From: Paenibacillus sp. JZ16
GTDB lineage: Bacteria > Bacillota > Bacilli > Paenibacillales > Paenibacillaceae
DNA length: 64,000 nt
Assembly: GCF_015326965.1 (NCBI RefSeq)
Contig: NZ_CP017659.1
Span: 1,054,001 to 1,118,000, forward strand
Direction: 5' to 3'
Below, in pieces: positions 22,433-55,028 of this stretch. The notes under the pieces are model-generated. The model was not told where the DNA came from. It worked only from the letters and a program-made list of their open reading frames with translations, and did no database searches. The translations under genes and the position numbers were made by a program. Positions within the stretch are counted from its first letter, which is position 1, and every line of letters begins with the position of its first letter.

Positions 22433-25090
<2,658 letters not shown>

Positions 25091-25128: not shown

Positions 25129-25157
25129 TTGACAAGAGTTTCTCAGCATGATACACT
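25129..25157 (+). promoter_or_regulatory. Strong antisense promoter in the rph leader
   Basis: TTGACA (25129-25134), 17-bp spacer, TACACT (25152-25157), preceded by an A6 tract like an UP element. It points away from rph into the rph promoter. The same layout occurs at helD (54364-54392). Confidence 0.65.
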
Positions 25158-25211
25158 TAGATTGTAAGATAAGATAATTATGTCCATACATCAAATCTCA
25201 GTCGTGATCTG

Positions 25212-25240
25212 ATTATATCATCGCGTCTGTTTATATGCAA
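25212..25240 (-). promoter_or_regulatory. rph promoter
   Basis: TTGCAT (25235-25240), 17-bp spacer, perfect TATAAT (25212-25217), reading leftward. The core ATGATATAATCAG is nearly identical to the helD promoter core. Confidence 0.7.
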
Positions 25241-25241
25241 T

Positions 25242-25279
25242 AAAAAAGAATCTGATGAAACTGCCAGGTTCTTTTTTTA
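25242..25279. terminator. Hairpin upstream of the rph promoter
   Basis: AAAAAAGAA-T-CTG pairs with CAG-G-TTCTTTTTT. It can end the candidate antisense RNA on the plus strand. Confidence 0.6.
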
Positions 25280-51900: not shown

Positions 51901-54318
51901 TCAATATGCCGCTTTCTCATATAAATCAGCTGGCAATGCCTGCACGAACGGTGACCAATCGTCCGTTGTGTATACATGAAGTCGGTGCATGGCCCGCGTA
52001 CATGCTGTATACAGAAGCTTGCGATCGTTTTCCCGGCTGTAAGCTTGAGGTGATGCCTCATAAATCAGAACGGCATCAAACTCAACACCCTTGGCGAGAT
52101 ATACGGGAATAACCATAACTCCTTTTTCAAAGGTGACCGTCTCCTTCGTAATGAGCTGCAATCCTTCGCTTCCTTGCTCCCTTAAAGATTCAAAGGCTGC
52201 GCGGCTTTCAGCCGCAGACTTCGTAATGACGGCAATAGAGTCTAAGCCCTCGGCTCTAAGTGCTGCGATGTCTTTCAGTATTCGTGCATCGCGCATTTCT
52301 TCGTCATCTAACTTCACAAGAAGCGGCTTATGTCCGCTCCTGTCAAAGGGGACGATTTCCGACTCAGCAGAGAGCAGCGTTTTCGTAAATTCCACAATCT
52401 CCAGTGTTGAACGATAGCTGCGCACAAGGTGGATCAAACAAGTTTCGGCTTCACCATAAAGTCGAGTAAGCGGCGAATCGGACTCATGCAGCTTGGTAGA
52501 CTGCGTAAAGATCGCCTGCCCGAAATCACCGAGTACCGTCATGCGGGCACGCGGAAATAGTTTTTTGAGATACTCATATTGAAACGCCGAATAATCCTGC
52601 CCCTCATCGACGAACACATGCCGAATCTCCGTGTTCGTTCGAACGCCTTCGATCAGTTCTTTTAAATACAGATACGGAGTCGCATCCTCATAGAATAATT
52701 CGAGCCGGTCCAGCTTTTCTTTGGTTTGCCTACAAATTTCAGACCATAGAACAGGGATCTCGGTCTCATTTGTCTTCTCTCGATAAGCAGCTTCATCATC
52801 AAACAATTGGACGTATAAGCTTTGGACATCGATAAACGAAAATCGCTTCACGCCTTGCCTTAGCGGTTTGAAGCTCATCTTCACAATCCTTTGGCTGAGG
52901 ATGTCTTCCTCCCGCTCGGCGAAGTCAAAGTCACCTTCATCTTCTCTGCGCTTATTGCTTATTTTCTCGTAAACAACGGCATAACGCTCGGCGATATCAA
53001 ACACTTCCCTATCCTTATGCAACTCGCTGAAAACTTCCGCATATTGCTCGTTGTCGAGGTATTGAAGCTCCTCCTCAACCCAGGACGCCCTCCGCTCTTT
53101 GCGCTCTAATAATGAAAGTTCCTTCAGAAGCCACTTTTGTAAGAGATCAACACGATTGGCTAAGCTCAAGGAAGGATCGTAGCTGTAGAATTGGGTTCTC
53201 ATTTGCTCCGACGTTATCAGAACACGATCCCGAAACCGAATGCCTTTGAACAGGATGCCTTCCCGCCCCAGCCACTTCGCATAGTTCTGCAGAGCCCTCA
53301 TGAAAGCTTCGGATGCCTTGTACTTCATCCCTTGAAGACGAGCCTCGTAATTCGGAGTTGATTGTGCGGTCAACACATATTCGATCTGATTGAAGGGATC
53401 CTCGACATGGAAGGATGAACCCAGCCAATATTCGAGATATTCCTGAAAAGTCGTCTGCTGCATGTTCTCCTCGCCGAGCTCGGGAAGGACAGTGGATACA
53501 TAACTGTTGAACATTTGATTTGGCGAGAAAAGAACGATCTGGTCTGCCTTAAGCGAATCGCGGTTTTTGTATAGCAAATACGCCACACGTTGCAAGGCTG
53601 CGGAGGTCTTCCCACTGCCAGCCGCCCCCTGGACGATAAGCAGCCGGCTAAAATCGTTTCGGATGATGGCGTTTTGTTCCTTCTGGATGGTTGATACGAT
53701 ACTCTTCATTTGGGAGTCCGCGCCTTTGGCCAGCATTTGCTGGAGCAGCTCGTCGCCGATCGTTACGTTCGCATCAAACATATGACGGATTTGTCCATCG
53801 TGAATCTGATACTGCCGTTTCAACTCCATCATACCCGTGATCTGCCCGACCGGCGTGACGTAAGAGGCCGCACCGGGGGAATGGTCGTAGTAAAGACTCG
53901 CGATGGGACTGCGCCAATCATATACCAGGAAGCTCAATTCATCTTCATCGACGAAGGATGATACGCCGATATAAATCTGCTCGCTCACATTCAGGCCGTC
54001 CTCTAGAAAATCAACACGCCCAAAATAAGGAGACGGCAGCAGCCGATGTAAGCTCCTCCATTGCTGCTTCAGAAGCCGGTGACGACGCTCCCTTTCGGAT
54101 AACACCGCAGCCTGTTGTTTAATCGTATAAAATGTTTCTTCAAACTCTTCGTCCGAGCTCGTGTTGACTGTAACCTCTTCCCAGAATCGCCTGCGAATCT
54201 CAGCAGCCTGATCGCGCATCCCGGTAACGCTTGGTTCCAACTGGTCGATCCTCGCCTTCATCTTTCCCCTTACCTGATCCAGCCGTTCTTGTTCTAACTG
54301 CCATTCCTTCGCTTCCAT
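51901..54318 (-). CDS. helD: HelD-type RNA polymerase recycling helicase-like ATPase
   Basis: The roughly 805-residue protein has the HelD layout: an N-terminal coiled-coil arm (residues 1-100), a pre-motor part (SFLVYDWRSPIASLYYDHSP), Walker A in LIVQGAAGSGKTSAALQRVA near residue 235, an inserted bumper region (about 330-560), VFVDEGQDYSAFQYEYLKKL (Walker B), TVLGDFGQAIF, LVRSYRSTLEI, VIPVYLAKGVEFDAVLIYE and LLYTACTRAMHRLHVY. HelD binds core RNA polymerase, pushes into the main channel and releases stalled complexes; related HelR proteins displace rifamycins. A GTG at 54333 is possible but touches the ribosome site; ATG at 54318 is used here. Its promoter region matches that of rph. Confidence 0.92.
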   Translation of the reverse strand: MEAKEWQLEQERLDQVRGKMKARIDQLEPSVTGMRDQAAEIRRRFWEEVTVNTSSDEEFEETFYTIKQQAAVLSERERRHRLLKQQWRSLHRLLPSPYFGRVDFLEDGLNVSEQIYIGVSSFVDEDELSFLVYDWRSPIASLYYDHSPGAASYVTPVGQITGMMELKRQYQIHDGQIRHMFDANVTIGDELLQQMLAKGADSQMKSIVSTIQKEQNAIIRNDFSRLLIVQGAAGSGKTSAALQRVAYLLYKNRDSLKADQIVLFSPNQMFNSYVSTVLPELGEENMQQTTFQEYLEYWLGSSFHVEDPFNQIEYVLTAQSTPNYEARLQGMKYKASEAFMRALQNYAKWLGREGILFKGIRFRDRVLITSEQMRTQFYSYDPSLSLANRVDLLQKWLLKELSLLERKERRASWVEEELQYLDNEQYAEVFSELHKDREVFDIAERYAVVYEKISNKRREDEGDFDFAEREEDILSQRIVKMSFKPLRQGVKRFSFIDVQSLYVQLFDDEAAYREKTNETEIPVLWSEICRQTKEKLDRLELFYEDATPYLYLKELIEGVRTNTEIRHVFVDEGQDYSAFQYEYLKKLFPRARMTVLGDFGQAIFTQSTKLHESDSPLTRLYGEAETCLIHLVRSYRSTLEIVEFTKTLLSAESEIVPFDRSGHKPLLVKLDDEEMRDARILKDIAALRAEGLDSIAVITKSAAESRAAFESLREQGSEGLQLITKETVTFEKGVMVIPVYLAKGVEFDAVLIYEASPQAYSRENDRKLLYTACTRAMHRLHVYTTDDWSPFVQALPADLYEKAAY

Positions 54319-54363
54319 GTTTTCTGAACACACTCCTTCTCAATCTGGTCCGAAAAAAGTGCA

Positions 54364-54392
54364 TTGACAAATCAGGATCACCGATGTACAAT
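54364..54392 (+). promoter_or_regulatory. Strong antisense promoter in the helD leader
   Basis: TTGACA (54364-54369), 17-bp spacer, TACAAT (54387-54392), followed by TAGATT and preceded by an A6 tract. It points away from helD and matches the antisense promoter at rph. Confidence 0.65.
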
Positions 54393-54398
54393 TAGATT

Positions 54399-54472
54399 AG
54401 GATAATAAATTATAATATCGGTTTCTTAATGACTTTTCAATTGCGCTACTGATTATAGCATAGCGCTTTTTT
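54399..54472 (+). ncRNA. Candidate antisense RNA opposite the helD leader and promoter
   Basis: The transcript from the 54364-54392 promoter would run about 72 nt, across the helD start site, and end at the hairpin GCGCTA / TAGCGC plus T6 (54443-54472). No reading frame or ribosome site is visible. Confidence 0.4.
54443..54472 (+). terminator. Terminator overlapping the helD promoter
   Basis: GCGCTA (54443-54448) and TAGCGC (54461-54466) followed by six Ts. The hairpin contains the helD -10 box. Confidence 0.65.
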
Positions 54473-54480
54473 GTGTTCAA
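54452..54480 (-). promoter_or_regulatory. helD promoter
   Basis: TTGAAC (54475-54480), 17-bp spacer, TATAAT (54452-54457), reading leftward. The core ATGCTATAATCAG differs from the rph core by one base. Confidence 0.7.
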
Positions 54481-54518
54481 TTGTTTTTTGTACTCCTTGG
54501 CGCATCTGCCAAGTTTTT

Positions 54519-55028
54519 TTATTTTCCCATAAAATCAAAAAAACCGCGTTGTAGGAAGAGGTCCCGCAACCCGGTTTTATCCAATGTAAGTCCGCTGGCG
54601 TTTAACATGGCTGAAGCTCCGATATAGCGGGCCTTTCCGGCTTTCACCACATCATGAAGAGCCTCCATTGGTACCCAAGCGCTTGAGGCTTTTGTCGATT
54701 TCACTCATAATTGCTTTCCGGGACAGACCCATACCGTTAGGACCTTCGTGCATACGGAAATGAACTTTGGTCGCAAGGACGATTTCATCCCGATTGGCAT
54801 AATCCTTTAATGCGCGGCCCACATCTCCTCACTTGGACCGTCTGAGTACACATTCGCCGTATCGAAAAAGTTGATGCCTAGCTCCAATGACTTTTTAATA
54901 ATAGGACGACTGTTCTCCTCATTAAGCACCCATTGATGCACCCACCGCTCTGCTGCGCCAAATCCCATGCATCCAAGACAGATGCGGGATACGTCGAGCC
55001 CGGTATTCCCTAGTTTCACATATTCCAT
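54519..55028 (-). pseudogene. Aldo/keto reductase gene, frameshifted and deleted
   Basis: The start (ATG at 55028) gives MEYVKLGNTGLDVSRICLGC and INFFDTANVYSDGPSEE, a typical AKR N-terminus with the catalytic Asp and Tyr, and then a stop near 54807. A second frame continues with RALKDYANRDEIVLATKV and LSRKAIMSEIDKSLKRLGT. A third resumes at MEALHDVVKAGKARYIGASA after a gap of about 20 codons and ends soon after. AKRs run about 320 residues; most of the C-terminal half is missing. The promoter upstream remains intact. Confidence 0.85.

What the first reader, a model, noticed from the sequence alone, without database searches (positions are those of the whole stretch)
54364..54480. helD carries the same convergent-promoter element as rph
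At helD: A6 tract, TTGACA, 17 bp, TACAAT, then TTAGATT and an A/T stretch with GATAAT, then CTGATTATAGCAT covering the sense -10. At rph: A6 tract, TTGACA, 17 bp, TACACT, TTAGATT, GATAAT and CTGATTATATCAT. The spacing between the opposed -10 boxes is 65 and 60 bp. A terminator with T6 ends the antisense unit inside the helD promoter. Two rifamycin-related genes sharing this layout suggests a small regulon. This may be a Firmicute counterpart of the rifamycin-associated element, not described to my knowledge.
Basis: partly seen in the sequence, partly recalled or inferred. Interest (0 to 1): 0.85.

Follow-up and report, generated by a model that had tools for sequence, protein, structure and literature searches.

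The report
Rifamycin-sensing paired promoters in Paenibacillus
In this Paenibacillus-like genome two genes that look like rifamycin-resistance genes, helD and rph, each carry a predicted second promoter aimed back at their own promoter, a layout shown in Bacillus subtilis to switch such genes on when rifampicin jams RNA polymerase and likely to do so here, and the same predicted layout sits before spare copies of the main sigma factor, which may therefore belong to the same response.

Summary
helD (54364-54480) and rph (25129-25240) each have a near-consensus antisense promoter facing a weaker-looking sense promoter. They are the only two places in the 64 kb window scoring 20 or more; five shuffled windows gave none. 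The layout is conserved at helD and rph across Paenibacillus and, for helD, into Cohnella, Alicyclobacillus and Aneurinibacillus. It is not undescribed: a January 2026 paper (PMC12802891) shows that such paired promoters are the rifampicin sensor of helD and pps (= rph) in B. subtilis. So helD here is a new member of a known kind, not a relative of the actinobacterial RAE. Two extensions came out. A second helD in this genome carries the layout. So do 30 of 30 short SigA paralogs examined (11 in the window's genus, 19 in five other genera of its family), against 0 of 20 housekeeping sigA upstreams and 0 in 800,000 strand-bases of genome sample. The parts of the 2026 paper that I saw name no sigma-factor target. 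Rifamycin induction of any of these genes here is inferred, not shown.

The parts
51901..54318 (-). helD (class I HelD, 805 aa)
   Evidence: NCBIfam NF041464 HelD_BACSU, 1104 bits against cut-off 419; UvrD domains
54353..54358 (+). A6 tract upstream of the antisense -35 (possible UP element, inferred)
   Evidence: sequence; longest A-run 4-7 in 27 of 27 helD1 and 5-9 in 27 of 27 rph elements tallied, but only 1-3 in 15 of 15 helD2 elements (3, 3 and 5 upstreams without a qualifying pair were dropped first)
54364..54392 (+). antisense promoter TTGACA-17-TACAAT; predicted start near 54399
   Evidence: 11 of 12 consensus; TTGACA in 30 of 30 helD loci, own and 29 congeners, and in 77 of 78 scored loci of the named scan
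54452..54480 (-). sense (helD) promoter TTGAAC-17-TATAAT with extended -10 (TGC); predicted start near 54445
   Evidence: 10 of 12, TG before the -10
54443..54472 (+). hairpin GCGCTA/TAGCGC + T6 wrapped around the sense -10: weak antisense terminator or a protein operator
54496..54520 (+). stronger intrinsic terminator (T7) upstream of the sense -35; likely end of the antisense RNA
   Evidence: (z -4.0)
22433..25090 (-). rph (rifamycin-inactivating phosphotransferase, 885 aa)
   Evidence: NCBIfam NF041857, 1516 bits against cut-off 999; a PEP-synthase-named model scores higher, 1687
25129..25157 (+). antisense promoter TTGACA-17-TACACT at rph; predicted start near 25164
   Evidence: TTGACA in 27 of 30 rph loci, own included
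25212..25240 (-). sense (rph) promoter TTGCAT-17-TATAAT; predicted start near 25205
   Evidence: not listed by the simple scan
25242..25277 (+). terminator-like hairpin upstream of the rph sense -35 (13-bp stem, 10-nt loop, T-tract)
   Evidence: -12 kcal/mol, z -4.0; not listed by the scan, which allows loops up to 8

Best explanation
[quoted passage not shown] subtilis. Inferred steps: without drug, polymerases leaving the stronger antisense promoter run over the slower sense promoter, keep it quiet and stop at a terminator just beyond it, making a short non-coding RNA of roughly 75-120 nt. At low rifamycin a drug-bound polymerase is more often trapped at the busier antisense promoter, interference stops, and a drug-free polymerase can leave the sense promoter and transcribe helD or rph. 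No regulator protein or ligand-binding RNA would be needed. Seen in sequence only: promoter pairs, their asymmetry, spacing, terminators and conservation. Not shown here: transcripts, start sites, promoter strengths, drug induction. The same layout at a second helD and at short SigA paralogs suggests a wider regulon of RNA-polymerase rescue factors.
For: Promoter pairs and scores. Conservation: TTGACA antisense in 30 of 30 helD and 27 of 30 rph upstreams and 77 of 78 scored loci of the named scan, which shares some genomes; pairs scoring 20 or more at 15 of 20 second-helD upstreams. Gap between -10 boxes in the 27 rph elements tallied: 54 in 20, 52-55 in 26. Specificity. Asymmetry: antisense closer to consensus than sense in 67 of 69 tallied elements, equal in 2. 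Terminator-like hairpin in the antisense direction upstream of the sense -35: 25 of 30 helD1, 24 of 27 rph, 13 of 15 helD2 elements, against 13 of 150, 7 of 135, 7 of 75 letter-shuffled segments (only upstreams with a pair were given for helD2). Predicted start-to-start distances of about 47 (helD) and 42 bp (rph) lie near the 39 bp reported for B. subtilis and above the 22 bp left by the uninducible del17 construct. Mechanism shown there: mutating the antisense -10 removes repression and inducibility, order of promoters matters, and a rifampicin-resistant polymerase abolishes induction.
Against: No transcript or drug-response data for this organism. The B. subtilis antisense promoters have 19-bp spacers; these have 16-18. 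Consensus match is a poor proxy for strength. At rph the simple promoter count is not above shuffles and no terminator is listed. Three of 30 rph upstreams lack the pair (L035, L057, L058), as do 5 of 20 second-helD upstreams. The hairpin over the helD sense -10 could be an operator for an unknown repressor.
Confidence: 0.87

Rival explanations
1. Base-pairing control: the antisense RNA acts by pairing with the helD/rph 5' leader rather than by transcription interference.
For: The antisense RNA would be fully complementary to the leader between the two start sites.
Against: Sequence between the promoters varies between genomes while boxes and spacing persist. No Rfam family matches at the helD region. 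In B. subtilis the antisense transcript falls as the mRNA rises, mutating the antisense -10 also raises sense transcription in vitro, and order and spacing of the promoters matter.
Confidence: 0.05
2. Operator model: the inverted repeat around the helD sense -10 binds a dedicated repressor, and the antisense promoter is secondary.
For: A stem of 6 or more pairs with 3 or more G-C flanks the -10 in 29 of 56 elements with a TTGAA sense -35, against 33 of 1560 random positions. Some of those stems use a G-T pair in the sense strand, which would be a C-A mismatch in the antisense RNA.
Against: Seen in 0 of 20 helD elements of the other type in the same call, so it is not the shared feature; the antisense TTGACA is.
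Confidence: 0.05
3. General initiation sensor: the pair responds to any fall in antisense initiation (initiating GTP level, other polymerase inhibitors), with rifamycin only one input; a sigma-factor target would fit this.
For: B. subtilis Panti-helD needs more GTP and helD rises in sporulation. The seventh base after the antisense -10 is G in 21 of 27 rph and 13 of 15 helD2 elements, but 13 of 27 helD1. A review passage reports induction of the B. subtilis helD promoter by streptovaricin too.
Against: Does not exclude rifamycin sensing; rph belongs to a rifamycin-inactivating enzyme family.
Confidence: 0.3
4. Chance or ordinary face-to-face promoters of neighbouring genes.
For: Such pairs do occur at divergent regulator genes with a palindrome between them (TetR/FadR-like, PadR-like by my reading).
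Against: At helD and rph the antisense side leads into a terminator-like hairpin; conservation and shuffles.
Confidence: 0.02

Closest known systems
Dual-promoter rifampicin alarm of B. subtilis helD and pps (Sudzinova et al. 2026, PMC12802891; abstract, sections 36, 37, 44, 45, 47-50 and some passages read)
   Same: Same two gene families, convergent sense/antisense sigma-A promoters, antisense nearer consensus, short terminated antisense unit, similar start-to-start distance.
   Different: Antisense spacers 16-18 bp instead of 19; a hairpin around the sense -10 in the helD of this clade; a second helD copy; short SigA paralogs as an extra target class, not named in the parts I saw (supplement not readable here).
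Rifamycin-associated element (RAE) of Actinobacteria (passages in PMC10719064 and PMC12802891; consensus recalled)
   Same: Marks helD-type and rifamycin-modifying genes and is linked to rifampicin induction.
   Different: A 19-bp palindrome thought to bind an unknown factor; not found in the window; no opposed promoter in the passages seen.
Transcription interference switches such as phage 186 and icsA (as named in PMC12802891)
   Same: A strong promoter silences a weaker opposed one.
   Different: Here the predicted signal is drug-arrested polymerase.

Membership tests
Dual-promoter rifampicin alarm (PMC12802891) | Two convergent sigma-A-type promoters within 300 bp upstream of the gene | tested here: met
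   sequence match only:
Dual-promoter rifampicin alarm (PMC12802891) | Downstream gene is helD or pps/rph | tested here: met
   HelD_BACSU and RIF_Ptrans_rph above cut-off
Dual-promoter rifampicin alarm (PMC12802891) | Antisense promoter stronger, sense promoter slow to escape | tested here: inconclusive
   only consensus match: antisense higher in 67 of 69, equal in 2; strength and escape not measurable here
Dual-promoter rifampicin alarm (PMC12802891) | Start sites far enough apart (39 bp; induction lost when shortened by 17) | tested here: inconclusive
   predicted about 47 and 42 bp for helD and rph from -10 gaps 59 and 54; start sites unmapped
Dual-promoter rifampicin alarm (PMC12802891) | Short antisense RNA ended by an intrinsic terminator | tested here: inconclusive
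   hairpins present at both genes and in most relatives, but the scan lists one at helD only; the RNA itself is not testable
Dual-promoter rifampicin alarm (PMC12802891) | Induction by sub-MIC rifampicin, lost with rifampicin-resistant polymerase | not testable with these tools
   needs experiment
RAE | 19-bp palindromic sequence upstream of the gene | tested here: not met
   0 matches at up to 3 mismatches in the window; consensus recalled from memory

The most novel reading that the evidence does not exclude
Paenibacillaceae make a rifamycin-inducible stand-in for their housekeeping sigma factor: a short SigA paralog lacking region 1.1, driven by the same paired-promoter alarm as helD and rph, which supplies initiation factor to polymerase freed by HelD, so the alarm restarts transcription as well as inactivating drug and clearing stalled polymerase.
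Probability: 0.42. Interest if true: 0.82.

Novelty: new member of a known kind. Interest (0 to 1): 0.52.

Why it matters
It carries a protein-free antibiotic sensor from one model species to a large soil genus, and shows that the layout searched strictly is close to a marker of helD and rph there: 73 of 92 hits in 40 genomes. The 2026 paper's own survey (18,798 genes in 11,591 assemblies) spreads over many functions. If the sigma paralogs are on the same alarm, the response includes a replacement initiation factor, a new idea about how bacteria ride out polymerase inhibitors that one RNA experiment can test.

Tried and rejected
RAE in Firmicutes: no match. Rfam: no family at 54200-54700. Terminator inside the helD promoter as a defining part: covariation test on 7 sequences uninformative; the wider stem test shows it in 29 of 56 elements of one type and 0 of 20 of the other, 2 of 78 loci not placed, so a clade feature. 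helD2 and helD1/rph elements as copies of one sequence: no alignment above shuffles (scores 4.5 and 6.0; 265 and 166 of 500 shuffles as high), while helD1 and rph do align.

Other candidate members: of 19 hits not at helD/rph, the downstream genes are scattered; two elements recur, each in two genomes (L101/L102, L104/L105), and some hits lie inside coding sequence or at divergent regulator genes with palindromic operators. A maltose-O-acetyltransferase-like gene has the pair in 2 genomes (G019, and two copies in G026, one of them judged by eye) but not in its next relatives: left as a lead. A pattern with fixed 17-bp spacers and gap 25-54 in 30 SigA2-bearing genomes gave 99 hits: SigA2 27 (26 of 30 genes), HelD 22, rph 3, other 47 at 41 places, reversed control 10; so specificity falls with shorter gaps. 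In the window's own genome that pattern gave 4 hits: rph, SigA2, helD2 and the TetR/FadR-like gene. My first scorer missed the SigA2 antisense -10 (TAATCT, 3 of 6 matches) in most of the window's clade; the later regex (TANNNT) was written after seeing it, which favours the 30 of 30 count; the controls used the same regex.

Full-length second SigA copies, judged apart: pair present in G153, G144 and G131, near miss in G146, absent in G067 and G097. Five distant RpoD-like genes (38-40% identity) lack it. In a class draw of 81 genomes, 75 of them outside the family, no second RpoD above 70% identity was listed outside Paenibacillaceae. Left out of the SigA2 count: sigma fragments of the broken-up genome G023 and one G146 piece that proved to have a region-1.1-like start.

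Full report
What is in the sequence. helD (51901-54318, minus strand; NF041464 HelD_BACSU) and rph (22433-25090, minus strand; NF041857) lie about 27 kb apart, edge to edge. Upstream of helD the plus strand reads A6, TTGACA, 17 bp, TACAAT (54364-54392), facing TTGAAC-17-TATAAT on the minus strand (54480-54452). Upstream of rph: TTGACA-17-TACACT (25129-25157) facing TTGCAT-17-TATAAT (25240-25212). Edge-to-edge gaps between -10 boxes are 59 and 54 bp. The sense -10 word ATGMTATAATCAG occurs twice in the 7,421,843-base genome, at these genes only. Scoring convergent pairs over the window gives just these two places at 20 or more, and none in five shuffled windows; in 400 kb sampled from the rest of the genome there are 2 such pairs. 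The two elements align at 87 of 117 positions, better than all 1000 shuffles. The simple promoter scan is less kind to rph: 1 site against 0.8 in shuffles, because the sense -35 matches 3 of 6; at helD it finds 6 against 0.5.

Conservation. Among the 30 best loci of each search of 61 genomes (own genome included), 30 of 30 helD and 27 of 30 rph upstream regions carry an antisense TTGACA promoter. At a score of 18.5 or more stand 27 of 30 helD and 27 of 30 rph regions, against 0.4% and 1.3% of shuffles. In a second, named scan, which shares some genomes with the first (contig lengths coincide, for example P. lactis and G002), 80 of 86 relatives were kept; 77 of 78 scorable loci have TTGACA on the antisense strand and 73 score 18.5 or more. 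The set includes Cohnella, Alicyclobacillus, Ferroacidibacillus and Aneurinibacillus. For base tallies I kept 27 helD1, 27 rph and 15 helD2 elements and dropped 3, 3 and 5 upstreams without a qualifying pair. In these the antisense promoter is nearer consensus than the sense one in 67 of 69, equal in 2. A terminator-like hairpin in the antisense direction sits upstream of the sense -35 in 25 of 30 helD1, 24 of 27 rph and 13 of 15 helD2 elements, against 5-9% of letter-shuffled segments.

Specificity. A looser pattern in the window's genome gives 7 hits (reversed control 0): rph, helD, a second helD, a short SigA paralog, and 3 others. A pattern describing only boxes and spacing, run on 40 congeneric genomes, gives 92 hits; 30 lie directly upstream of rph, 27 of helD2, 15 of helD1, 1 of another helD copy, 19 elsewhere; the reversed pattern gave 4 hits in all. 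The strict pattern misses members: it found 30 of 38 rph, 27 of 40 helD2, 15 of 29 helD1 and 1 of 3 helD3 genes that I listed (a helD1 in pieces in G034 was left out).

What it is. PMC12802891 (abstract and sections 36, 37, 44, 45, 47-50 read, plus passages) demonstrates in B. subtilis that helD and pps, the local rph, are controlled by two convergent promoters. The stronger antisense promoter represses the slow-escaping sense promoter by interference; in its model sub-MIC rifampicin stalls polymerase at the antisense promoter and releases the gene. The start sites are 39 bp apart, and removing 17 bp abolishes induction. With starts taken 7 nt after each -10, the gaps here correspond to about 47 bp (helD), 42 bp (rph) and 34-41 bp (helD2 elements, gaps 46-53), so they lie near that geometry. 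Thus the best reading is that helD in this genome is a member of that known system. Shown here: sequence, conservation, specificity. Inferred: promoter function, interference, rifamycin response.

Clade variants. The antisense spacer is 16-18 bp, not 19. In the helD type with a TTGAA sense -35, an inverted repeat brackets the sense -10 in 29 of 56 loci (33 of 1560 random positions). In the window it is a 6-bp stem with a 12-nt loop and T6, weak as a terminator; it may end some antisense transcripts or be an operator. It is seen in 0 of 20 loci of the other helD type, so it is not needed for the layout.

Second helD. The 52% identical helD2 (G000:C1:1997832-2000132) carries its own pair, TTGAAT-17-TATAAT facing TTGACA-17-TATAAT, gap 53; 15 of 20 helD2 upstreams examined score 20 or more, 5 do not. 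Its element shows no alignment to those of helD1 or rph beyond shuffles, so shared layout rather than shared sequence.

Short SigA paralogs. Hit G000:C1:1688096 lies upstream of a 316-aa RpoD with regions 1.2, 2, 3 and 4 but no region 1.1; the genome has a normal 377-aa SigA elsewhere. Six short paralogs scanned in Pfam, this one included, all lack region 1.1; for the rest that is read from frame length. I collected the paralogs listed (31 genomes; 98 genomes) with at least 75% identity and a reading frame under 345 aa, leaving out fragments in G023 and one G146 piece that proved to have a region-1.1-like start: 30 genes, 11 in the window's genus and 19 in five further genera of the family. 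All 30 have sense TTG-17-TANNNT facing antisense TTGAC-17-TANNNT (29, 25 of these with TTGACA; 1). Controls with the same pattern: 0 of 20 housekeeping sigA upstreams and 0 in 800,000 strand-bases of the window's genome. The gap is 42-45 in 21, 42 or 37 in one, 37-38 in three, 49 in one, 27-29 in four. A terminator-like hairpin stands upstream of the sense -35 in 21 of 29 (14 of 145 shuffles). In a tree the housekeeping SigA proteins form one group (support 85/87) while the short paralogs fall into several (4 label changes, 3-4 in bootstrap trees; well-supported branches force only 1, so a single origin is not excluded). The layout is thus either old or was acquired more than once. Full-length second copies are mixed: 3 of 6 have the pair.

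Reading of the sigma result. PMC11464796 (abstract, passages, sections 7 and 8) shows mycobacterial HelD and sigma-A together on polymerase, with HelD contacting sigma region 2 in the primary channel. It also notes that mycobacterial sigma-B lacks a helix that wraps around HelD, so a shortened sigma may bind HelD complexes less well; that cuts against a tight HelD partnership. A paralog without region 1.1 and with nearly unchanged promoter-reading regions (alignment) could still serve polymerase that HelD has freed. This is inference. Also against it: predicted start-to-start distances are about 30-33 bp in most, 25-26 in three and 15-17 in four, shorter than the 39 bp proven to work, and the last four fall below the 22 bp of the uninducible construct; these may use the pair differently, for example as a sensor of initiating nucleotide or of sigma-A activity. 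Paper searches for a SigA paralog in Paenibacillus or a rifampicin-induced sigma of this kind listed nothing relevant (listings only). The parts of PMC12802891 that I saw name none, though it gives 'transcription factors' as a class; of 29 places with 'sigma' or related words 12 were shown, and its supplement was not available.

Verdict. Observation confirmed; interpretation right in substance about a shared element and small regulon, wrong on novelty and on kinship to the RAE. The helD element is a new member of a known kind; the sigma paralogs are the part a specialist would not expect.

Noticed in passing
G000:C1:1687134-1688081 (outside the window; L090, L142): Short SigA paralog without region 1.1 with convergent promoters upstream; same layout at 30 of 30 such paralogs collected in the family.
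   Followed up: yes
G000:C1:1997832-2000132 (outside the window; L069, L091): Second helD (52% identical) with its own convergent pair, gap 53, score 23.
   Followed up: yes
L107/L112, L108, L113: Maltose-O-acetyltransferase-like genes in two congeners have convergent promoters upstream, their next relatives do not.
   Followed up: partly
G000:C1:4681669-4681769 (L359); L099, L362: Face-to-face promoters with a GAATGAGTATTCATTC-type palindrome between them at a divergent TetR/FadR-like gene (my reading of the protein start), recurrent in the clade: a look-alike class with an operator.
   Followed up: partly
L092, L106: PadR-like regulator and aldo-keto-reductase-like gene with opposed promoters around a palindrome of the ATATCCAACGTTGGATAT type; gene names are my reading of the protein starts.
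   Followed up: no
L035, L057, L058: Three congeneric rph genes lack the promoter pair; one of them (L058) has an internal stop.
   Followed up: no
L060: One rph element has a -10 gap of 40 instead of 52-55, a natural test of the spacing rule.
   Followed up: no
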